IMG/VR virus record: IMGVR_UViG_3300008107_000157
Span: 1 to 64,000 of that record
DNA: 64,000 nt
From: a virus
Reading direction: 5' to 3' (one strand)
Below are positions 166-14,107 of the stretch, piece by piece. How positions within the stretch are numbered: position 1 is the first letter of the stretch; each line of letters starts with the position of its first letter. Under the pieces are notes generated by a model. It worked only from the letters and a program-made list of their open reading frames with translations, was not told the DNA's origin and searched no databases. Position numbers and translations under genes: made by a program.

Positions 166-363
166 TTATTTGTTTTTATCAAAAATATTTTGTAATTTCT
201 CTTTTCTTATAGCTTTTTGAGTTTTAATTCTTTTAGTTACAGATGGTTTTTCAAACTCTTTTCTATCTCTAAGTTGCTCAATTTGCTTTACGCTTTTTAC
301 TTTATTCTTGTAAGCTTTTAATGCTCTTTCGATGTTTCCATCTTTTACATCAATAATCAACAT
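166..363 (-). CDS. rpsU: Ribosomal protein bS21, phage-encoded
   Basis: The 65-residue basic protein matches bS21 over its length. The start MLIIDVKDG, then the pattern ALKAYK, QLRDRKEFEKPSV and a lysine-rich helical tail follow the Bacteroidetes form of S21, which typically begins M-I/L-I-I-x-V-K-x-G and carries R-x-x-x-x-F-x-K-P-S-V. bS21 binds the small ribosomal subunit next to the 3' end of 16S rRNA, where start sites are selected. Phage copies are thought to exchange into host ribosomes and favour phage mRNA. It is the last gene before a terminator, downstream of the prohead genes. Family assignment is strong; the effect on translation is inferred. Confidence 0.85.
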   Translation of the reverse strand: MLIIDVKDGNIERALKAYKNKVKSVKQIEQLRDRKEFEKPSVTKRIKTQKAIRKEKLQNIFDKNK

Positions 364-369
364 AACTTT

Positions 370-741
370 TTATTGGTGATTTACTAACTTATATTTTGTT
401 TTATATAATAAAGATACAACTGTATCGATATCGTTTTGAATCCAGCTATCTTGTAATTTTGGATTCTGTCTTAACTTTGCAACCATTACACATAATTTTT
501 CAAAATAATTAATTATGTTTTTGATATCATTATTTTTATCCAATACTCCGATACCAGATAATTGTATTAAACCTTCTTTACCCTGATATACTTCTACTAA
601 TCCATCAATTAATCCACCAATTGAATCATAGTATTCACCCAATGCAACGTGTGCTGAATGTGCTCCCACACCCCTAACACCTAAATGAAATGAATGAGTT
701 TGCGTTCTACTTTGTAATAGTAATGATGCTAATTCTTCCAC
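370..741 (-). CDS. Dps/ferritin-like small phage protein (DUF5856-like)
   Basis: The protein has 123 residues. Near the N-terminus the pattern T-H-x-F-H-L, then H-x-A-H-x-A-L-x-E-Y-Y and I-D-G-L-V-E resembles the metal-site helices of Dps/ferritin-like proteins. The match is to a small family seen in T4-like marine phages, sometimes annotated as starvation-inducible DNA-binding protein or DUF5856 (name from memory). A role in DNA protection or iron binding is possible but unproven, and the fold is inferred from His/Glu spacing. The start is GTG and overlaps the upstream gene's TAG stop by one base, which suggests coupled translation. Confidence 0.5.
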   Translation of the reverse strand: MEELASLLLQSRTQTHSFHLGVRGVGAHSAHVALGEYYDSIGGLIDGLVEVYQGKEGLIQLSGIGVLDKNNDIKNIINYFEKLCVMVAKLRQNPKLQDSWIQNDIDTVVSLLYKTKYKLVNHQ

Positions 742-1169
742 TATTTTTTATTTTTCGATTCTCTTAACCCTAATCTTTTTCTCATAACTTCTTCGGAAAC
801 ATCTGCAATTTCAAAGTATCTATTCAATACATGTCCCATATCTTCGTAAAGAGCTTCCAATCTTTGTTCTTGTGCTTTTGCTTCTAATGCTTCTTTTTGG
901 AATTTTTCGTGCAATCCTTTTAACTCCTTCATATTACGTTTAATAGTAACTCTATCAAACCAATCACCACCTTCTCTCAAAGTGTATTCTTGTGCCGCAT
1001 CTGCAATACCACCCAAAGTTTCTGCAACAGTTCTAATATCAGATTTTCTATTCATTTGTTCACCAAATTGGCCAAATGTAGAAATTATTTCCAAAAAGTG
1101 TTTTTTGATTTCGGTAGGAAGTTGTTGAAATTCTTCTTCCTCATTCAATAAATCTTTTAACTTTATCAT
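741..1169 (-). CDS. Conserved hypothetical protein, helical
   Basis: This 142-residue, highly charged protein is predicted to be almost entirely alpha-helical. Residues from about 75 to 135 are rich in E, K, L and A in a coiled-coil-like pattern. It begins MIKLKDLLNEEE, a short amphipathic start like that of other small head-module proteins in this window (compare the start of the gene at 2447-2854). I recognise no function. Its place between the prohead protease and bS21 suggests a head or packaging accessory role. Confidence 0.7.
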   Translation of the reverse strand: MIKLKDLLNEEEEFQQLPTEIKKHFLEIISTFGQFGEQMNRKSDIRTVAETLGGIADAAQEYTLREGGDWFDRVTIKRNMKELKGLHEKFQKEALEAKAQEQRLEALYEDMGHVLNRYFEIADVSEEVMRKRLGLRESKNKK

Positions 1170-1439: not shown

Positions 1440-2030
1440 TTAGTTTAATTCTATTATAATTTCTCTCATTAAATCCTGTGATTTACACCATTTACCACAT
1501 TCTTCTGCAACTTTTTTCCATTGCTTTGATTCGTTCATCGGAGCCATAAATGCTCCATGCGTAGATGGATTTGATACAAAATCCCATCCAACTAATTCAA
1601 AGTCTTCCTGAACCATTAAAGTACCATCATTAAGTTCTTTTACTGAACCTAATCCTCTACTACTAATACCTAAACGAATATTATTTTTTAGTAATTCTCT
1701 AAGAATGTTTCCCGATGGAGTTGAAAGGATTTCTACTACACCAACAACATCATCACCATCCCAACCAATTTCTCTAATATTATGTGAAACGTTTTTAAGG
1801 TTAATAACAGGGGAATCTGGATGGTCTAACTCACCCAATGCTCTTCTTTCTTTAATAAGTTGTCCGTATTTTTGACACTCTCTTTCTAAGATTTCTTTAG
1901 GATATCTTCTATTATTTTGGTTAGGAGCACCTGCTCTTTGTAGGATACCTTTAACCAAATAAGTTCCGTTATCTTGTTCTACTAATTTAGCTTCGAACAA
2001 ATGCGTTTCTATTAATAATCCTTTATTCAT
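1440..2030 (-). CDS. 21: Prohead core protease, T4 gp21-like
   Basis: The 196-residue protein is close in size to T4 gp21 (212 residues). It has the family's catalytic signatures: L-G-E-L-D-H-P with His70, and G-I-S-S-R-G with Ser123 or Ser124, followed by an acidic segment and G-W-D-F-V-S-N-P near residue 150. This serine protease is built into the prohead core and cleaves scaffold and capsid precursors before DNA packaging. In T4 the order is portal, core proteins, protease, scaffold, capsid; the same order is followed here through the protease. The major capsid gene is not in this window and should lie elsewhere. Confidence 0.9.
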   Translation of the reverse strand: MNKGLLIETHLFEAKLVEQDNGTYLVKGILQRAGAPNQNNRRYPKEILERECQKYGQLIKERRALGELDHPDSPVINLKNVSHNIREIGWDGDDVVGVVEILSTPSGNILRELLKNNIRLGISSRGLGSVKELNDGTLMVQEDFELVGWDFVSNPSTHGAFMAPMNESKQWKKVAEECGKWCKSQDLMREIIIELN

Positions 2031-2450
2031 TTATCTTATATCTTTTTTTACCTTTTCTACCGCTTTATCCGTCAATCCTTTATCTTCCCACGCTTTTAAT
2101 AATGCGGTTTTTATATGGTTTTTTAATTCAGTTTCATCCAATTTTCCGTTTGTACTATCACTCATTTTTGTTATTTGAGTTTGTACATATCCCATTTTTA
2201 AAATTCTATCAGCAACTCCGTTATTTATTCCATCGTTACTATCTAACAATTTAGCTATATCATTCATAGCTTGTTTATTATTAGATATAGATTCTAATAT
2301 TTTGATAACAGCTTTTCTATATTCACTATTACCATTTATGTAACTACCTACTTTTTTAACTAATTCATTAAAAAAATAGATAACCACTTTACCCAATATA
2401 GCAAAGGATATAGTTAAAAGTATTCCTTCAACTACACCTTCGTTAACTAC
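2031..2450 (-). CDS. Frameshift-dependent membrane/core extension
   Basis: An open frame of 139 codons begins directly at the A10 tract at the end of the upstream gene and runs to the prohead protease start. It contains no ATG or GTG before its hydrophobic segment; the first usable start is TTG at 2396, inside that segment. Read from 2450 it starts VVNEGVVEGILL and continues with a roughly 20-residue hydrophobic stretch that could be a membrane helix, followed by a charged helical domain. I interpret it as the -1 frameshift extension of the 135-residue gene upstream, giving a 274-residue fusion. A single-base assembly error in the A tract is the alternative. Confidence 0.6.
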   Translation of the reverse strand, partial: VVNEGVVEGILLTISFAILGKVVIYFFNELVKKVGSYINGNSEYRKAVIKILESISNNKQAMNDIAKLLDSNDGINNGVADRILKMGYVQTQITKMSDSTNGKLDETELKNHIKTALLKAWEDKGLTDKAVEKVKKDIR

Positions 2451-2463
2451 TTTTTTTTTTGAG
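2447..2463 (-). other. Candidate -1 frameshift site (A10, A AAA AAG)
   Basis: The minus strand reads CAA AAA AAA AAG TAG in the zero frame. The heptamer A AAA AAG is the slippery sequence of E. coli dnaX, with codon phase X XXY YYZ and the stop codon immediately after it. A -1 slip passes the stop and enters the open frame 2450-2031. I did not find a clear downstream pseudoknot by eye. Transcriptional slippage on the A10 tract could give the same product. Confidence 0.6.
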
Positions 2464-2854
2464 CCCCTTCATTTTTGGCTCTCAATGCTGCTAAATCAGA
2501 ACCTTCAATCTCACCATCTTTATCGGTATCGATTTGCTTTTGCTTATCAGTTAATTCAGCCACACTACTAAGTGCTTTACTGAATTCACTGGAAACTTGC
2601 CCATCTACATCCGATTCCATACCACTTGTATCTGCGCTGTATCCCCCATCACTTTCATTATATCCTCTCAACTTACCTTCTGATTTTGCTTTAGCGGCTT
2701 TATCTACAGCGTTAAAGAATGCTTTCTTTTCAGTATCGCTCATAGACTCAATTGATTTACCAGTTCTATCCAACATTGCTTTGAACATTTCTTGATAATC
2801 GTTTTCTTCTTTAACAACTTGTTTGATAAGTTCTTTTAATTGAGTTAATTTCAT
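2447..2854 (-). CDS. Prohead core-like acidic protein with an EF-hand-type loop
   Basis: The 135-residue, acidic, helix-rich protein begins MKLTQLKELIKQVVKEE. Near its C-terminus it has D-T-D-K-D-G-E-I-E-G-S-D, which fits the calcium-binding loop D-x-D-x-D-G-x-I-x-x-x-D of EF-hand or dockerin-type repeats. It ends in three lysines coded by the A10 slippery tract. It sits two genes before the prohead protease, where T4 has its small core proteins (gp67, gp68), so a scaffold or core role is likely. Two products are expected if the frameshift works: 135 residues and a 274-residue form with a hydrophobic segment. Confidence 0.65.
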   Translation of the reverse strand: MKLTQLKELIKQVVKEENDYQEMFKAMLDRTGKSIESMSDTEKKAFFNAVDKAAKAKSEGKLRGYNESDGGYSADTSGMESDVDGQVSSEFSKALSSVAELTDKQKQIDTDKDGEIEGSDLAALRAKNEGAQKKK

Positions 2855-2855
2855 T

Positions 2856-3806
2856 TTATTCTGATATTTTTCGTATTTGTTGTTCTAATCTTATAAGTCT
2901 TTCCTTTATCTTATAAATATTACTATTTGTTCTTTTCCAAAAAGACCCGTTAGAAACTCCGTTTTCTGATTTTAATTTACCATACCAACCTAAAAACTTT
3001 TCTATTTCTGCAAGTTGTTTGTTTATGTTTGAGATACCTCTATTTACTTTTGTAGTAGCTGGTGCATCTTCTTTTTTTAATGCAACCCAACGATTTTCAT
3101 TCATTACAAAGTTTCCATCTTTATCGGATACATAGTAGGCAACCATATTATACGAACCCCCTCTTTGCTTTTCAAGCTTTTCTACCTCTTTCTTAGCATC
3201 TTTATAGGATGAATATGAATCTTTGAAAACTCCCTTACCTTGTCCTCTACCTTTGTTATATCCTACATAGTATAAACCTTCTTTTACTACACTATACCCA
3301 GTCAATGCAGCTTGTTTTTTTCCCTTAGATTCTTCATCTTCTTTTCTACCAAATGCGTATGGAGTACCATATCCGGCAACATCGCCCGTTGTAGTAGCTT
3401 CATCAACTTTCAATTCAGCATCTTTATACATACCACTAACTTTAGCATCCAATTCTGCTGCTAATTTTTTCTTTTGTGCCGTTAATGTTTTTAAATGTTG
3501 GATGTGTTGTTTTTCTTCCGGAGTTCCTTTAGATTTTTTATATAATTCTAAATGTTTCTCCATAGAATCGATTACTTTTGCATAATCGGTTTGTATAGCT
3601 CTAACTGAACGTAATTCTGCTAATACGATTTCTTTGATTTTATCGGGCAAACCTTTATGAGATGTGGATGCAAAATCTTTAGCATCTTTATCACTCATTG
3701 AATCAGCTGCTTTCGCAACTTCAGGAGATGGATTTTCCATATCACCTTTTTGAGCGGCATGTACCATTCCCATAAATTTTTGTTGAGCTTTAGATTGTGC
3801 TGGCAT
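2856..3806 (-). CDS. Prohead core-like protein with an N-terminal DUF3008-type domain
   Basis: The protein has 316 residues. The first 55 match the short domain known from many marine phage and bacterial proteins as DUF3008: MPAQSKAQQKFMGMV, then SPEVAKAADSMS and DFASTSHKGLPD. A lysine/glutamate-rich helical segment (about 60-135) follows, then a Tyr/Gly-rich region (about 170-230) and a C-terminal coiled coil. It overlaps the end of the upstream gene by 17 bases. Lying between portal and prohead protease, it is probably an internal head or scaffold protein. The biochemical function of the domain is not known to me. Confidence 0.65.
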   Translation of the reverse strand: MPAQSKAQQKFMGMVHAAQKGDMENPSPEVAKAADSMSDKDAKDFASTSHKGLPDKIKEIVLAELRSVRAIQTDYAKVIDSMEKHLELYKKSKGTPEEKQHIQHLKTLTAQKKKLAAELDAKVSGMYKDAELKVDEATTTGDVAGYGTPYAFGRKEDEESKGKKQAALTGYSVVKEGLYYVGYNKGRGQGKGVFKDSYSSYKDAKKEVEKLEKQRGGSYNMVAYYVSDKDGNFVMNENRWVALKKEDAPATTKVNRGISNINKQLAEIEKFLGWYGKLKSENGVSNGSFWKRTNSNIYKIKERLIRLEQQIRKISE

Positions 3807-4665
3807 TTTTTAGTTCTTTTAAAAGTTCATAAGACATCATTAATGCCGACAAATGTGATTCTTTTAATTTCTTAACACTTTTAATTTTCTTAATGTTAGA
3901 AATTGTTTCTGCCAATTTGATTTTTGTTACTTTATCTGAAACTTTAGAACCGATTTGCTTTAGACCTTCTGATAAAGAATTAACTTCATTAGTAACATAC
4001 TCTTTTAATTTACCAGTATTGTTAATATTGTTGATATATTCTTTAAGTAATCTTTTTTGTTCTTCTGATAAATTATTGTATTTTTTGTTGAAGTTTTCTA
4101 CTAACATTTTGTAAGATAGCATTCTAACTTCTTCATCTTGCTTTTTATATTCTTCAAAAACTCTATCGTTTACTTTTTTATCTTTATTTTCAATCGATGA
4201 GTTAATCATATTTTCAACGATTGTAAATTTGGAATTAACTATATCCTTTGGTTCAAATGATTCTTTACTAATACTTGCTTCAAAAATTTTGTAGATTGAT
4301 GCTAAAGATTTATAATTTGAAATTGGAGATTTGGTAAACTCATCAATATTATAAGTTTCTTTTATTTGCTTAATAAGATTATATTTTTCTTTTGTGATTT
4401 TCTGCTCATCTAATCTTTTACGAGCTTCGCACACAGTTTCTACGAATTTCTCAGCTTTTGATTCTGAATTATATTTTTCATTAATCAAATACTGATATAG
4501 TTTTAACTCTTTTGAAAGTTCTTTTTTAGAAGAAAAAAATTCTTTTAATATCTTTTCAGCTTTTGAATTAGTATTACCAGACATAATTTCTGATGTAATT
4601 TGTCTTACTAATAATTCAAAAATGAATCCTGTGTTTTTAAACTTTGAGTGTTTAATATTTTTCAT
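3790..4665 (-). CDS. Conserved head-module protein (KHSKFxNTGxxFELLVRQ family)
   Basis: The 291-residue protein starts MKNIKHSKFKNTG followed by FIFELLVRQIT, a beginning I associate with a conserved but uncharacterised protein of T4-like marine phages next to the portal gene. The rest is lysine- and glutamate-rich and predicted helical. I chose the ATG at 4665 over the TTG at 4668, because it follows the candidate promoter and leaves a normal 46-base leader region after the portal stop. Position and composition suggest a scaffold or core role; no enzyme motif is visible. Confidence 0.65.
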   Translation of the reverse strand: MKNIKHSKFKNTGFIFELLVRQITSEIMSGNTNSKAEKILKEFFSSKKELSKELKLYQYLINEKYNSESKAEKFVETVCEARKRLDEQKITKEKYNLIKQIKETYNIDEFTKSPISNYKSLASIYKIFEASISKESFEPKDIVNSKFTIVENMINSSIENKDKKVNDRVFEEYKKQDEEVRMLSYKMLVENFNKKYNNLSEEQKRLLKEYINNINNTGKLKEYVTNEVNSLSEGLKQIGSKVSDKVTKIKLAETISNIKKIKSVKKLKESHLSALMMSYELLKELKNASTI

Positions 4666-4685
4666 CAATTATATAATTTCTCTGA

Positions 4686-4711: not shown

Positions 4712-6466
4712 TTACTTCTTATCCAAATTCTCTGTTAAAATGGTCTTTTTATTACCATCCATATCCTTAAATACTTCTAAATAGGAAGATTTTCTCGGTT
4801 TGTAATTAACAGACCCTTCTTTTTGTTTAAGAGTTTTAATTCCTAATGGGTCTCTACCTTGTGGATGGTCATCTTTACCATATCTAACTACATCCTTCGG
4901 TCTGCCAACCCCATCTTCTTCTAATTCGTTTTTAATTTTACTAATTTCTTCTTCAACATCGGTAGGGCCGTCTGTTCCCGTTTCTTTTGCCGGGTCAACA
5001 CCTTGTGTTTCGATTGATGTTAAACGGAACATTTGTTTAGTATCCTCTAATACTGCAACTGTTTGTTCATCTTGTTCATCTTGCGCCATTCCCATAATAG
5101 ATTGATACATCCATTCTTTAGAGAACATTTTAGTTTGTTGCATTTGGGTAATCAATGCTACTTTAGAAGTATATAATTCAACCTTCTCTTGCTCATAGAT
5201 TTTAGATGGAATAGTTAATTCTAATGAAAAATCAGTTAAACTATCATCTTCAATTCCTTGTGAATATAAGTGAACTATTGCAATCTTTGTTAATTCTGAA
5301 ATCAATACTCTTTGAATTCTTTCGATGGTTTTTGCAAATCTAACATCTTGTGCTGCTAAAGTTGCCTTACCATTAATATCTTCTTCGTATCCTAAAAACG
5401 CTTTAGGAATCTTTAAAGATGACATCAATTTATTTTTAAGATAATTAATATCATCAATCATATTATATTCCAATCCCTTCAATGTATCGATAGATGTACC
5501 ATTATCACTACCACGAACTGGCATATAGTAATCTTCAATAAGGTTTTGAATATTATATTTTAAGTTGTACTCACCTGTTCTTTCATCAACGAAAGGAACT
5601 TTTTTAGATGAGTTAATAATTTTCTGCATATAGTTATCCACTTCGTTTGGTGGAATATTACCAACATCTACCTTAAAGATTCTCTTTTCAGGAGCTCTCA
5701 TTACTCTATGAATCAACATAGCATCTTCCATAAGAGATAATTGTTTCCAAACCCTTCTACCACCTTCAATCATCGATTTACCATAAGGTAGGAAGTTTGC
5801 ATCTGAATTTAAACGGAAGTGAGCTACTTCATAGTTTTCGTATTCTTTTTTATTTCCTGCGTTAGCTGGAGAATATCCACTATTTGGATTCATAAATGGT
5901 GAATATACGAATTTAACTCTTTGTGGATTTTCTATATCAAATCCTTCTACTCTGCTTGTTTCATATACAGACATTGGGATTACGTTTATAATACCCAATC
6001 CTTCAGCCATTTCTAATTGTAAAAATAAATCACCATATTTTACTAAATTTCTTGTCCAAGGCCATAATGTAAATTCGATATTCATTATATCGTAGAACAA
6101 ATTTTCTAATATTTGTTTTACATTATCATCTGGGTGATGTATCTTTAATATATTACCTTGTTCGTTTTTTGCAGTACATTCATCAGCGTATATATCTAAT
6201 GCCGATGAAAGTATCGGGTCCATGTCCATTGAATCGTAATCTCTAAACAAGTCAATTCTAACTTGCTGATAAGCCATTGCGGATTCTATCAAACCTCCAC
6301 TAAATTGTGGGGTTCTCATACGCATGTATCTATCTACTAAGTTTGTTGTTAAACTTTGGTGCTCATCGGTATCTATTACCTTAATACCTTTTTCGGTTTT
6401 TCGAACTATGGTATTGGTTGAAAATAGTTTTTGTAACCTACCAAAAAATGATTTATCTGATGCCAT
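4712..6466 (-). CDS. 20: Portal vertex protein, T4 gp20-like
   Basis: The 584-residue protein is slightly longer than T4 gp20 (524). It shows the family pattern: D-x-D-P-I-L-S-S-A-L-D-I-Y-A-D-E near residue 80, P-Y-G-K-S-M-I-E-G-G-R-R-V-W-K-Q-L near 240, the R-A-P-E-K-R-I-F-K-V-D-V-G segment, and I-P-K-A-F-L-G-Y near 370. Twelve copies form the ring at one capsid vertex through which DNA is packaged and to which the neck attaches. The C-terminal 70 residues are polar and probably disordered. It lies three genes upstream of the protease and two downstream of the terminase, as in other T4-like phages. Confidence 0.92.
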   Translation of the reverse strand: MASDKSFFGRLQKLFSTNTIVRKTEKGIKVIDTDEHQSLTTNLVDRYMRMRTPQFSGGLIESAMAYQQVRIDLFRDYDSMDMDPILSSALDIYADECTAKNEQGNILKIHHPDDNVKQILENLFYDIMNIEFTLWPWTRNLVKYGDLFLQLEMAEGLGIINVIPMSVYETSRVEGFDIENPQRVKFVYSPFMNPNSGYSPANAGNKKEYENYEVAHFRLNSDANFLPYGKSMIEGGRRVWKQLSLMEDAMLIHRVMRAPEKRIFKVDVGNIPPNEVDNYMQKIINSSKKVPFVDERTGEYNLKYNIQNLIEDYYMPVRGSDNGTSIDTLKGLEYNMIDDINYLKNKLMSSLKIPKAFLGYEEDINGKATLAAQDVRFAKTIERIQRVLISELTKIAIVHLYSQGIEDDSLTDFSLELTIPSKIYEQEKVELYTSKVALITQMQQTKMFSKEWMYQSIMGMAQDEQDEQTVAVLEDTKQMFRLTSIETQGVDPAKETGTDGPTDVEEEISKIKNELEEDGVGRPKDVVRYGKDDHPQGRDPLGIKTLKQKEGSVNYKPRKSSYLEVFKDMDGNKKTILTENLDKK

Positions 6467-10042: not shown

Positions 10043-13000
10043 TTATCTTCCAAACTTAAAAATTCCTAAAATTTGATTTAACGGAGCGAATGTGCCCGTT
10101 AATTTATAGGTATTTCCTTTGTAGAAAAATACTAATCCTTCATTTGGAACTAACTTTTCAAATCCACCAATAGCGTTTAATCTAGCTAATTCCTTTTCTA
10201 ATCTTTTTATTTGTGCTTCACTACCACCACTCTTAATATCTGATATAGATGATTCCAATGATGATTTAATCGATTGTAATGCTGCATCGGGTTGAGCGGT
10301 TAATACTGAACTCATAAATGAAAGAACTTCTGCACCAACTCCTAAAAAGATATCTTCAAATTTACGAAGGTTTCCTTTCATAATCTTATCCTTTGCATCT
10401 TTATCCACACCATCTGCCCATTTTCTGGCATCTTCATCGGCGACTGATTTGATTCCGAATGATTTATCATCAAATGCCCATCTTCTAGCTAATCCTTCTT
10501 TTTCTAATTGAGCTAAATTCTTTTTTGATTTGTTTACAAAGTTCATCCACCAAGCATAATGATAATCAGCTACACCATCTCTATCGGATAATCCAAATTC
10601 AGATTGTAGTTTGGATAACATACCATTAAACTTACCCTTTTGGGAACTTAGCTTCTCATCTTTTGGTAGTTTTGTAATTGGAGGTCCTTGTAGTGTATAT
10701 GTACTTTGTACGTGCTTATTAATATCTTTAATCATAGATGCTAATTTACTTTCAGCACCTTTTACACTACCTACTGCGTTTCCTTTTTCATCGTATTCAA
10801 CTACATTATGAAATACTAATAGATTTTGTCCATAAGGAATTACATTTGCATTTTGTGGATAGATTACTTCTAAATTACAAAACGCTGAACCATCTTTGAA
10901 TATACTCTGTCTTTCTTTTTCACTTAATCCACTAATTGCTGAATATAAATCTCTCATTGCGAAATTATATGCATCACTTAATGCACCTCTACCACCAAAC
11001 TTAGATGCCAATGCACTCATATCTAATGCACTTGCTCCACCATTTGATAAATGCCCTTTATTACGAGCTGCAATTAACTTACCATTTTTCCAACTGATTG
11101 CTAATGCCTGTCCATCGGTTTTTTCTCTAACAACTCCCAACTTACCATCTAAAGCGTTGTTGATAATCTTTTTTAAATCACCAAATGTAAGATTCATTGA
11201 AATATCAAATGGATGGTTCATATGTCCATACGCACCACCTTCACTTATAATTTCTTTTGATTCGTAAATGTGTCCGTTTCTTCTACCGAAATCTCTTAAA
11301 AGAATTCCTGCAGCCGCATTAGCTTCGTTTTCAACATCGGAGCCAGTAGCACCATCTTCATAACCACCAACAGTTCCAATTTCTCTTTGCTTTAGATGAA
11401 CTAATTCGTGTGCTAATGTTCTAAGGATATCCGGCATACTTCTATTTGAAACATACACAAATATTTCATCGGTATTTGGGTCATACCCACCATACGATTT
11501 AAATGTAGTTGCAAATTCGTTATCTTTTACTAATCTTATTTGAAATGGAAATTTATTTAAAGATAATCTATCCTTTGCGAATTTAATAAATTCACCTATG
11601 ATTTGAGCTTTACTTTTTTTTTGCTCTGGAGCTGGGATTTCTTCTTTTAATAATCCCAACTTAACAGACATATCAGTTACTTCTTCGTAATCAGTATCTC
11701 TTAAACTTCTTTCTACTTCTCTTCTATTTGCATTTGGGTCTGCACATACAGCTGCTCCAATTTTCTTTCTACCAAATGAACCTGCTTTGTCCCACATCTT
11801 CATAATGGCTTTATAGTGCCAATCACCTGCACCAACTTCGTTGAACGCAGATGGAACTTTAACTTTTACCCAACCACCATGTCTAAATAATCTAGCAGGT
11901 ATTGGTAGTGTAGAACCTATTGGTAATTTATTCTGATATTTCTTATCAATTCCAATTACTTTGGTAACAAATTCTCTATTCTTATTATCTGCTCCTACTA
12001 ATTCAACTTCTACATCAACAGGCTGTCCACCTATTTTAATTTTACCTTTAAAGAATCCTTTATTGATTTCATTTACAGTTCTAAATGTGGTTGCTTGCTT
12101 ACCATTAATTGTTGGCATTCCGTGGTCATCAGTTCCGATATCTTTAATGGTAACTTTTTTATTTTTAAATTTACCCATTAAAACTTCATCACCTTTATCA
12201 ACATCTACATTCACATCTTCTTTAACCAAATCACCAAATTCTTTACCTTGCTTATATGCTTTTATAGAATCCAATAATTGTTCATCTGACATTTCAAATG
12301 TTTCCATTTTTTCTGCCATCTTATTTATTACATTCTGAATATATTTTTCAGAATTCATTTCTTCTTCTTCGGTAACTAAATAACGAATTTCCAATAATCC
12401 CATAGTTGCTCCAGCTAATCCTGCTCCACCAAGTGCGGCCTGTGTACCACCCAATCCCATTGCTTCTAATGCAACGTGTTTAACCGCATCTTTACCCAAA
12501 TGTGCAGCAAATGCACCTACTCCGTGAGTGAATGAACCAACTATACCACTTCCGACAGCTTGACCAGCTGTGGAGGCTATTCCCGTAACACCACCGCCCG
12601 CTGCTAAACTTAAACCACCGCCCGCTGCTGCTTTACCAAGTGCTGCTAAACCACCACCAAGTGCAACACTACCAACTAAAAGAGCTAAATCTTTTACAAA
12701 ATGCTTCACATGGCCTATTTGCTCTTTTCTTTTTTCATCGGAGTATTCCCATTCGCCGGTTTCTTTATTTTTAGTAGAACCAACTTTTTGTCCGCTTGCT
12801 AATGCTTTAACAGCATGCCAACTGCCTTTAACCATATCGGATTTGTGTTGTAAAACATGTCCTATTGCTTTAACAACTTTAGTATCGGCTACTTTCTTTA
12901 AACCATCTTTCAAAGAGTTCATAAATTTAGAGCCCTGCTTATGTTCACCTTTTTCAATGAAATCCTGCTCTTCTTTACCTAATGATTTAATTTCATTATC

Positions 13001-14107
13001 TAATGTAGCTTTTAGTTCTTCTGCTTTTCTTTCTTTTGCTACTCTATCTTCTGCATCTGATTTTAATTCAGTACCACTTAATTTTTGTTCTGGTGGTGGG
13101 GCTTGTTTTTCTCCACCCTTTTCTCCACCATCGCCTTTTGGTTTATCATCAGCTTTACCTTGTTCGGTATCGCCTTTTTTAACGGGTTGGCCTGGCTGTG
13201 ATGGTTTATCATCTTTCTTTTTGGGTTCGTTTGCAGGTGCATCATCTGGTCCAACTAATTTAGCTGCTTGAATATGAGCTTCGTGGTCTTTTGGTAATCT
13301 TAATGCGTTTCTTACAGTAATTTTTTTCTTTTTACCATCTGCGGCAGTATATGTAAGTTCCTTATCCATATTTGGATTAGGTTCTTCTTCTAAGAAGTAT
13401 TCTTCAATAAAATTATCAGCTTCAAATACTAATTTTGCAATTTGTTCTGCAATTGGGTCATATACATACGAATCATCCGTAGTTGCTACTGAACGGATAT
13501 CATCATTTTTCTTTTGTATGTTTTGAACATCCTCTTTGGATGGATAACCTTTTATAAATCCTTCTTTAATCAATTTGTTAGTTATCATTTTATAAATTTC
13601 TTTATCGAATTTTGGATATGCTTTCAAAAATAGCTTTTCAGCATTATCCGAACTTAGCCAACTTCTTACATCCGTACCACTAATTGGATTTGAATCCGCT
13701 GGTATAATATAAGTATAACCAATCTCATCATAACCATATCCAGTCTTACCTTTGTATGGTTTAAAATATTTTCCTGCTAAACGAGTTGCATCTTTTTCAC
13801 CAACAGCCGCTATGTATGCGGTAGTTTTACCATCAAATTTAGAAAGTATTTCTTTTGGAGCGTATGGATTTGATACTTGTACAATTTTGTTTGGTGGGAT
13901 ACCAAACATTTTACCCATTATAACAACTTTTTCTTTAAAGTTAAATGGAGATTTACCAGAATCGGTTTTATCAGATGTACCAATATAAACATTACTAGCG
14001 CCAAATTTTGACACTAATTTTTGGTAGGCAGCGTAATGTCCTTTATGAAAAGGTTGAAAACGGCCCGAATATACTACTACGGTCTTTTTAACTTCTGGTT
14101 TATCCAC
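10043..14107 (-). CDS. Multidomain protein: NMNAT-like, HExxH peptidase, ligase-like
   Basis: The 1354-residue protein starts at GTG. Residues 8-160 are a cytidylyltransferase-fold domain with G-R-F-Q-P-F-H-K-G-H (His21, His24) and I-S-G-T-D-V-R (142-148), as in NMN or pantetheine-phosphate adenylyltransferases. A Pro/Lys/Glu-rich linker follows (about 260-400), then a Gly/Ala-rich hydrophobic stretch (about 473-573). A zinc-peptidase motif A-H-E-L-V-H lies at 899-904. The C-terminal domain carries ligase motifs: K-T-D-G (Lys996), L-E-V near 1080, E-G-L-V (Glu1323) and Y-K-L (Lys1335). Substrates are unknown. It lies between the glycan cassette and the packaging genes and may be a virion or ejected protein (inference). 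Confidence 0.75.
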   Translation of the reverse strand: MDKPEVKKTVVVYSGRFQPFHKGHYAAYQKLVSKFGASNVYIGTSDKTDSGKSPFNFKEKVVIMGKMFGIPPNKIVQVSNPYAPKEILSKFDGKTTAYIAAVGEKDATRLAGKYFKPYKGKTGYGYDEIGYTYIIPADSNPISGTDVRSWLSSDNAEKLFLKAYPKFDKEIYKMITNKLIKEGFIKGYPSKEDVQNIQKKNDDIRSVATTDDSYVYDPIAEQIAKLVFEADNFIEEYFLEEEPNPNMDKELTYTAADGKKKKITVRNALRLPKDHEAHIQAAKLVGPDDAPANEPKKKDDKPSQPGQPVKKGDTEQGKADDKPKGDGGEKGGEKQAPPPEQKLSGTELKSDAEDRVAKERKAEELKATLDNEIKSLGKEEQDFIEKGEHKQGSKFMNSLKDGLKKVADTKVVKAIGHVLQHKSDMVKGSWHAVKALASGQKVGSTKNKETGEWEYSDEKRKEQIGHVKHFVKDLALLVGSVALGGGLAALGKAAAGGGLSLAAGGGVTGIASTAGQAVGSGIVGSFTHGVGAFAAHLGKDAVKHVALEAMGLGGTQAALGGAGLAGATMGLLEIRYLVTEEEEMNSEKYIQNVINKMAEKMETFEMSDEQLLDSIKAYKQGKEFGDLVKEDVNVDVDKGDEVLMGKFKNKKVTIKDIGTDDHGMPTINGKQATTFRTVNEINKGFFKGKIKIGGQPVDVEVELVGADNKNREFVTKVIGIDKKYQNKLPIGSTLPIPARLFRHGGWVKVKVPSAFNEVGAGDWHYKAIMKMWDKAGSFGRKKIGAAVCADPNANRREVERSLRDTDYEEVTDMSVKLGLLKEEIPAPEQKKSKAQIIGEFIKFAKDRLSLNKFPFQIRLVKDNEFATTFKSYGGYDPNTDEIFVYVSNRSMPDILRTLAHELVHLKQREIGTVGGYEDGATGSDVENEANAAAGILLRDFGRRNGHIYESKEIISEGGAYGHMNHPFDISMNLTFGDLKKIINNALDGKLGVVREKTDGQALAISWKNGKLIAARNKGHLSNGGASALDMSALASKFGGRGALSDAYNFAMRDLYSAISGLSEKERQSIFKDGSAFCNLEVIYPQNANVIPYGQNLLVFHNVVEYDEKGNAVGSVKGAESKLASMIKDINKHVQSTYTLQGPPITKLPKDEKLSSQKGKFNGMLSKLQSEFGLSDRDGVADYHYAWWMNFVNKSKKNLAQLEKEGLARRWAFDDKSFGIKSVADEDARKWADGVDKDAKDKIMKGNLRKFEDIFLGVGAEVLSFMSSVLTAQPDAALQSIKSSLESSISDIKSGGSEAQIKRLEKELARLNAIGGFEKLVPNEGLVFFYKGNTYKLTGTFAPLNQILGIFKFGR

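What the first reader, a model, noticed from the sequence alone, without database searches (positions are those of the whole stretch)
2031..2854. Probable programmed -1 frameshift (A AAA AAG TAG) fusing a core-like protein to a membrane segment
The 135-codon gene ends CAA AAA AAA AAG TAG. A AAA AAG is the E. coli dnaX slippery heptamer in the right phase, directly before the stop. The -1 frame is open for 139 codons down to the prohead protease and has no ATG or GTG before its hydrophobic segment, so it is hard to translate in any other way. The result would be two products, 135 and 274 residues, of which only the longer has a hydrophobic segment. A prohead protein made in two forms by recoding would be a new example next to the protease.
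Basis: partly seen in the sequence, partly recalled or inferred. Interest (0 to 1): 0.75.

Follow-up and report, generated by a model that had tools for sequence, protein, structure and literature searches.

The report
Frameshift lengthens phage head-module protein
In a large group of uncultured T4-like phages, a gene beside the head protease ends in a long run of A's where some ribosomes probably slip back one base and make a second, longer protein with a membrane-type segment; the signal is conserved across 71 sequence variants, so it is a real and apparently undescribed recoding site.

Summary
A 135-codon gene between a T4-type portal and prohead protease ends CAA AAA AAA AAG TAG; the -1 frame is open for 139 codons with no start codon before its hydrophobic segment. 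IMG/VR holds the same arrangement in 71 distinct haplotypes (43 clusters below 90% identity), all with 10 or 11 A's and the same -1 relation. In these loci, A/T runs of 9 or more are almost confined to this site. A stem-loop about 7 nt past the slip site is more stable than synonymous recoding predicts in 86% of haplotypes, has compensatory changes, and is weaker in one lineage where the tail has its own ATG. This supports programmed -1 ribosomal frameshifting. Transcriptional slippage is the main rival, because the run never drops below 10 A's although A6G would suffice. All extensions carry (V/I/L)-x-Glu just before the hydrophobic helix, resembling T4 gp21 sites; stand-alone relatives share the Glu. 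I infer that the shift attaches a protease-releasable, membrane-prone cargo domain to a prohead core protein; that function is untested. No earlier report was found in the papers searched.

The parts
2447..2854 (-). 0-frame gene, 135 aa, putative prohead core protein (N-domain of both products), stop TAG at 2447-2449
   Evidence: ORF; conserved family in 80+ IMG/VR loci; position between gp20-like portal and gp21-like protease
2450..2456 (-). slippery heptamer A AAA AAG
   Evidence: sequence; last codon AAG in 61 of 71 haplotypes, otherwise AAA (7), AGG (2), AAC (1)
2451..2460 (-). A10 run; A10 or A11 in all 71 fused haplotypes
2402..2442 (-). stem-loop starting 7 nt after the heptamer, putative frameshift stimulator
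   Evidence: folding z -3.6 to -6.1; relatives:
2340..2387 (-). second hairpin, in the window's own clade
   Evidence: consensus in the close clade
2031..2450 (-). -1 frame extension, 139 codons plus stop
   Evidence: open frame; conserved as protein in this frame
2439..2447 (-). Val-Asn-Glu at the start of the extension; putative prohead-protease cleavage motif (V/I/L)-x-E
   Evidence: present in all fused extensions; Glu invariant, stand-alone relatives included; resembles LLDE-A of the major capsid protein (site inferred); cleavage not shown
2370..2435 (-). hydrophobic segment of the extension, possible membrane helix
   Evidence: 19-mer hydropathy 2.16 versus at most 0.83 in upstream genes; helix in model
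1440..2030 (-). prohead protease, T4 gp21 type (context)
   Evidence: Pfam Peptidase_S77 1.2e-29, PHROG 207 1.1e-52
4712..6466 (-). portal protein, T4 gp20 type (context)
   Evidence: Pfam Portal_T4 1.5e-71

Best explanation
[quoted passage not shown] Most ribosomes read CAA AAA AAA AAG and stop at TAG, giving the 135-aa protein. Some slip back one base on A AAA AAG, helped by a stem-loop about 7 nt downstream, and continue for 139 codons to give a 274-aa protein. The long form shares the presumed core-binding N-domain and then has a (V/I/L)-x-E junction resembling gp21 sites, a hydrophobic helix and an alpha-helical C-domain. Inferred function: the shift sets a minor dose of the C-terminal cargo carried into the prohead by the core protein, and the neighbouring protease cuts it free during maturation. 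Shown by comparative sequence: two frames, conserved slip run and phase, conserved downstream structure, both frames conserved as protein. Inferred: that slippage occurs on the ribosome, its efficiency, the cleavage and the location. Confidence: about 0.95 that it is a programmed frameshift at some level, 0.8 that it is ribosomal, 0.35 for the cargo function.
For: 91/91 loci keep the -1 relation with A10/A11; 71 haplotypes in 43 clusters below 90% identity; 65 of 77 distinct A/T runs of 9 or more in the fetched loci are this site; 16 loci with room downstream lack the tail, and those examined lack the run; downstream structure: z -3.37 right after the run in 41 haplotypes, more stable than synonymous resampling in 86% of 64, compensatory changes; heptamer is the E. 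coli dnaX site (PMC5009743). Function: invariant Glu shared with stand-alone relatives that carry short N-terminal peptides, gp21 cuts after L/I-X-E and frees internal proteins (PMC9026906), capsid-targeting-like N-termini in a neighbouring family.
Against: The run is never shorter than 10 although A6G would suffice for the ribosome. No expression data. No conserved upstream Shine-Dalgarno-like stimulator seen by eye. A few haplotypes have little downstream structure (L026, L018, L081, L045, L144). The cleavage motif is short, and P1' is mostly Asn, unlike T4.
Confidence: 0.8

Rival explanations
1. Programmed transcriptional slippage: RNA polymerase stutters on the A10/A11 run, and transcripts with one extra A (or two fewer) are read by ordinary translation into the tail.
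For: The run is always 10 or more, held by an extra AAA codon when the preceding codon does not end in A; the base after the run varies (G, T or C); bacterial polymerases slip on runs of 9 or more (PMC5009743).
Against: A conserved, synonymously constrained stem-loop lies downstream at ribosomal spacing, which polymerase slippage would not be expected to need; A AAA AAG is kept in 61 of 71 haplotypes.
Confidence: 0.17
2. The long form is a membrane tether for prohead assembly: the hydrophobic segment holds the core/portal complex at the inner membrane and protease cleavage at the junction releases the prohead.
For: T4 proheads assemble at the inner membrane and detach after gp21 maturation (PMC9026906); the hydrophobic segment lies directly behind the putative cleavage motif.
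Against: Many relatives lack the tail, so it is not a general requirement; stand-alone relatives carry short N-terminal signals like packaged internal proteins. This concerns function only and is compatible with either level of slippage.
Confidence: 0.25
3. Two separate genes, the second started independently (internal start or reinitiation); the A run is incidental or an assembly error.
For: One lineage has the tail as a separate gene with its own ATG (L095-L099, L101); some haplotypes have in-frame ATG or TTG codons within the hydrophobic segment.
Against: Apart from L095/L101 no haplotype has a start codon before the conserved Glu; run and phase are uniform in 91 loci.
Confidence: 0.03

Closest known systems
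Escherichia coli dnaX -1 frameshift
   Same: A_AAA_AAG slip site followed at short distance by a stem-loop (PMC5009743)
   Different: dnaX shifting yields a shorter product and has a Shine-Dalgarno-like stimulator upstream (own knowledge); here the shift yields a longer product, no such element is evident, and the A run is always 10 or more
Phage capsid frameshifts (T7/T3 gene 10, Lactobacillus phage A2, Listeria phages)
   Same: Two head proteins sharing an N-terminus, the longer made by frameshifting near the 3' end (PMC5009743)
   Different: Those extend the major capsid protein, often by an Ig-like domain; here a small putative core protein gains a hydrophobic helix and helical domain
Lambda gpG/gpGT tail assembly chaperones
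   Same: Minor frameshift product links a shared domain to a second function in assembly (PMC5009743)
   Different: Different module (head rather than tail); no sequence relation claimed
T4 internal proteins with capsid-targeting sequences
   Same: N-terminal targeting region, a gp21-type motif, then cargo (PMC9026906); a neighbouring gene family starts M(I/L)(K/R)L..LLxE
   Different: T4 uses a 10-19-residue propeptide in one frame; here a whole core protein would be attached by frameshifting
Transcriptional slippage genes (e.g. Shigella mxiE, Thermus dnaX)
   Same: Homopolymeric A/T run of 9 or more at a frame change (PMC5009743)
   Different: A conserved downstream stem-loop is present here

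Membership tests
Programmed -1 ribosomal frameshift sites | X_XXY_YYZ slippery heptamer in the right phase before the 0-frame stop | tested here: met
   A AAA AAG in 61 of 71 haplotypes; A AAA AAA or A AAA AAC in 8; in 2 (AGG) A AAA AAA one codon earlier
Programmed -1 ribosomal frameshift sites | downstream stimulatory RNA structure at about 5-9 nt | tested here: met
   a few haplotypes are weak
Programmed -1 ribosomal frameshift sites | evolutionary conservation of both frames and of the slip site | tested here: met
Programmed -1 ribosomal frameshift sites | trans-frame product observed | not testable with these tools
   needs reporter or mass spectrometry
Transcriptional slippage sites | homopolymer run of 9 or more A/T at the frame change | tested here: met
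   A10 or A11 in all 71 haplotypes
Transcriptional slippage sites | heterogeneous transcripts | not testable with these tools
   no RNA data
T4 gp67/gp68 prohead core proteins | position between genes 20 and 21 | tested here: met
   two further genes (2856-3806 and 3790-4668) lie between the portal and this gene
T4 gp67/gp68 prohead core proteins | sequence homology | tested here: not met
   hhalign probability below 1%
gp21-type prohead protease substrates | L/I-X-E cleavage motif | tested here: inconclusive
   (V/I/L)-x-E in all, mostly V at P3 and N or G at P1'; cleavage not shown

The most novel reading that the evidence does not exclude
A whole group of T4-like phages uses frameshifting to dose a protease-releasable, membrane-active cargo into the head by fusing it to a core protein, and the site combines ribosomal slippage with a long A run that may also make RNA polymerase slip.
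Probability: 0.3. Interest if true: 0.8.

Novelty: new variant of a known kind. Interest (0 to 1): 0.7.

Why it matters
Recoding in phages is known mainly from tail chaperones and major capsid proteins. A conserved site in the prohead core region next to the maturation protease would add a new kind of target, suggests how phages could fix the dose of a packaged internal protein, and means that automatic gene calling misses or splits this protein in many environmental genomes. The natural contrast set (fused, separately started and absent tails) makes the role of the long form directly testable.

Tried and rejected
Assembly error: rejected by the uniform phase in all loci. T4 gp67/gp68 homology: none found. 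Known fold for the tail: the model is confident (pLDDT 86, pTM 0.80) but has no significant PDB match and one significant viral match, an uncharacterised 204-aa phage protein. The N-gene model is poor (pLDDT 61) and was not searched. Cultured relatives Microcystis phage Mel-JY01 and Flavobacterium phage immuto share the protease but show no recognisable tail next to it. Tail and upstream gene found no convincing match in 50,697 phage records (Ochrobactrum and Vibrio hits are weak), and the tail none in bacterial genomes; two stand-alone relatives likewise. RNAalifold gave no consensus for the diverse clade, so named-structure counts and synonymous resampling were used; on the close clade it found mainly the second hairpin. 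No Rfam match. Literature searches found no earlier description.

Full report
What is there. The finding lies on the minus strand. The gene 2854->2447 encodes 135 residues and ends CAA AAA AAA AAG TAG; the A10 is at 2460-2451. From base 2450 the -1 frame is open for 139 codons to TAA at 2033-2031 and abuts the prohead protease gene 2030->1440. The protease is a Peptidase_S77 (T4 gp21 type, 1.2e-29), and a T4-type portal lies upstream at 4712-6466 (1.5e-71). In the -1 frame there is no ATG, GTG or TTG before codon 19, which is already inside the hydrophobic segment.

Conservation. Searching IMG/VR with the extension gave 33 loci, with the upstream gene 103 (80 kept), and with the alignment of extensions 138 (80 kept). 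In all 91 loci of the first two searches that hold both parts, the extension is in the -1 frame and a run of 10 or 11 A's sits near the junction (six of these belong to the separately started lineage described below). Collapsed to unique sequences and with the third search added, there are 71 fused haplotypes, 47 with A10 and 24 with A11, in 43 clusters below 90% identity. The run keeps its length through sequence change: CAA or GAA before AAA AAA AAG gives A10; when the previous codon is GTT, GCC, GTG, ATT, CTG or GCT there is one more AAA. The last codon is AAG in 61, AAA in 7, AGG in 2 and AAC in 1. Of 77 distinct A/T runs of 9 or more in the fetched loci, 65 are this site. Both frames evolve as protein: differences per site at codon positions 1, 2, 3 are 0.30, 0.20, 0.45 for the extension in its -1 frame and 0.24, 0.24, 0.42 for the upstream gene in frame 0. 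Sixteen loci with room downstream lack the extension; in those examined the upstream gene ends ...LRKKD or ...LRKK without the run and the protease follows directly.

RNA signal. Folding of the window shows a stem-loop 2442-2402 beginning 7 nt after the heptamer and a second hairpin 2387-2340 (z -6.07 for 117 nt). In 41 haplotypes of the more diverse clade the 70 nt right after the run have mean z -3.37 and MFE -17.3, the strongest position between -260 and +320; two haplotypes with a separately started tail give -0.7. With amino acids held fixed and codons resampled, the native sequence is more stable at p<=0.05 in 86% of 64 haplotypes (mean z -3.6); the separately started ones give -1.6 to -1.7, and control windows further into the tail average 0.1 to -2.0. 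On 38 aligned haplotypes a 29-pair structure is formed in 82.8% of cells against 39-55% when slid, with 57 double-change cells against 32 in shuffles. The core helix (8 pairs) is 90% paired, with U-A/C-G exchange at one pair and C-G/U-A at the next. The structure was taken from one of these sequences and related sequences are not independent, so the synonymous test carries more weight.

Mechanism. A_AAA_AAG followed by a stem-loop is a standard bacterial -1 signal; it is the dnaX site and among the most efficient heptamers in E. coli (PMC5009743; PMC4066793). I therefore favour ribosomal frameshifting. The feature this does not explain is why the run is never shorter than 10, since A6G would do. 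Runs of 9 make bacterial RNA polymerase slip (PMC5009743), so transcriptional slippage, alone or in addition, stays open. The hosts are unknown; Bacteroidota are plausible from the relation to a Flavobacterium phage protease, which is only a hint.

Products. The long form is 274 residues. The extension has a hydrophobic 19-mer with mean hydropathy 2.16 (same median over 55 relatives), while no upstream gene tested exceeds 0.83. AlphaFold2 on 34 relatives gives a confident all-helical model with one significant viral structural match of unknown function and none in the PDB. The Glu of (V/I/L)(N/S/D/T)E just after the Lys run is one of two invariant residues in the set that includes stand-alone relatives (tally). 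T4 gp21 cuts after L/I-X-E and releases internal proteins from short targeting propeptides (PMC9026906). The major capsid proteins of these phages carry NQAKQLLDEATRTG in their N-terminal region, probably their own cleavage site (inferred). A neighbouring small-gene family begins with a 10-residue M(I/L)(K/R)L..(I/L)LxE, much like a T4 capsid-targeting sequence. Stand-alone relatives of the extension in some of the same genomes begin with short peptides such as MRLSDFIKEEYKTKKK..NINEG, MQKLSDLVNEKYKTDK.., MENKQQLNEF and MAKKENLNEL. One lineage (L095-L099, L101) carries the extension as its own gene, MIKLKSILIEVMKKKSVNENL.

Reading. The simplest account is that the extension is a small membrane-prone head protein that needs an N-terminal delivery region. 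Stand-alone forms have one of their own; the frameshift form borrows the core protein, in a dose set by the shift, and is probably cut free by the protease. A membrane tether for prohead assembly is an alternative. The recoding itself rests on strong comparative evidence; the function is a hypothesis.

Prior knowledge. Head-protein frameshifts in phages are known for major capsid proteins, and tail-chaperone frameshifts are widespread (PMC5009743; PMC10885494). Full-text searches for a prohead or core-protein case, and a look at the Far-T4 paper, found nothing. The library is incomplete, so earlier reports cannot be excluded.

Noticed in passing
window 166-363 (-): Small gene resembling ribosomal protein bS21 by eye, in the same module as the RpsU gene annotated in Microcystis phage Mel-JY01. 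Related phages have it between gp21 and gp22.
   Followed up: no
window 11614-11622 (A9 in gene 10043-14107, -): The only other A/T run of 9 or more in the window, in EQKKSKAQ of the 1354-aa gene; a -1 slip there would lead to an early stop. Conservation not tested.
   Followed up: no
window 10043-14107 (-) and L047, L106, L110: A domain (GDWHYKAIMKMWDKAGSFGRKKIG...) in the 1354-aa protein also occurs as an insert near the C-terminus of the longer versions of the frameshift gene's 0-frame protein, so head-module proteins exchange modules.
   Followed up: partly
window 741-1169 (-) and relatives: Gene family with a conserved 10-residue N-terminus M(I/L)(K/R)L..LLxE followed by A/E/T/S, like a T4 capsid-targeting sequence; a candidate packaged internal protein.
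   Followed up: partly
L049 6958-7428, L060 8362-8820, L064 4333-4791, L077 6483-6977, L087 5596-6027: Stand-alone relatives of the extension with their own start and short N-terminal peptides, several in genomes that also have the frameshifted copy.
   Followed up: yes
window 14280-42465 (-): Long cluster of genes that look by eye like sugar-nucleotide, glycosyltransferase, methyltransferase and radical-SAM enzymes, perhaps for glycans. Not searched.
   Followed up: no
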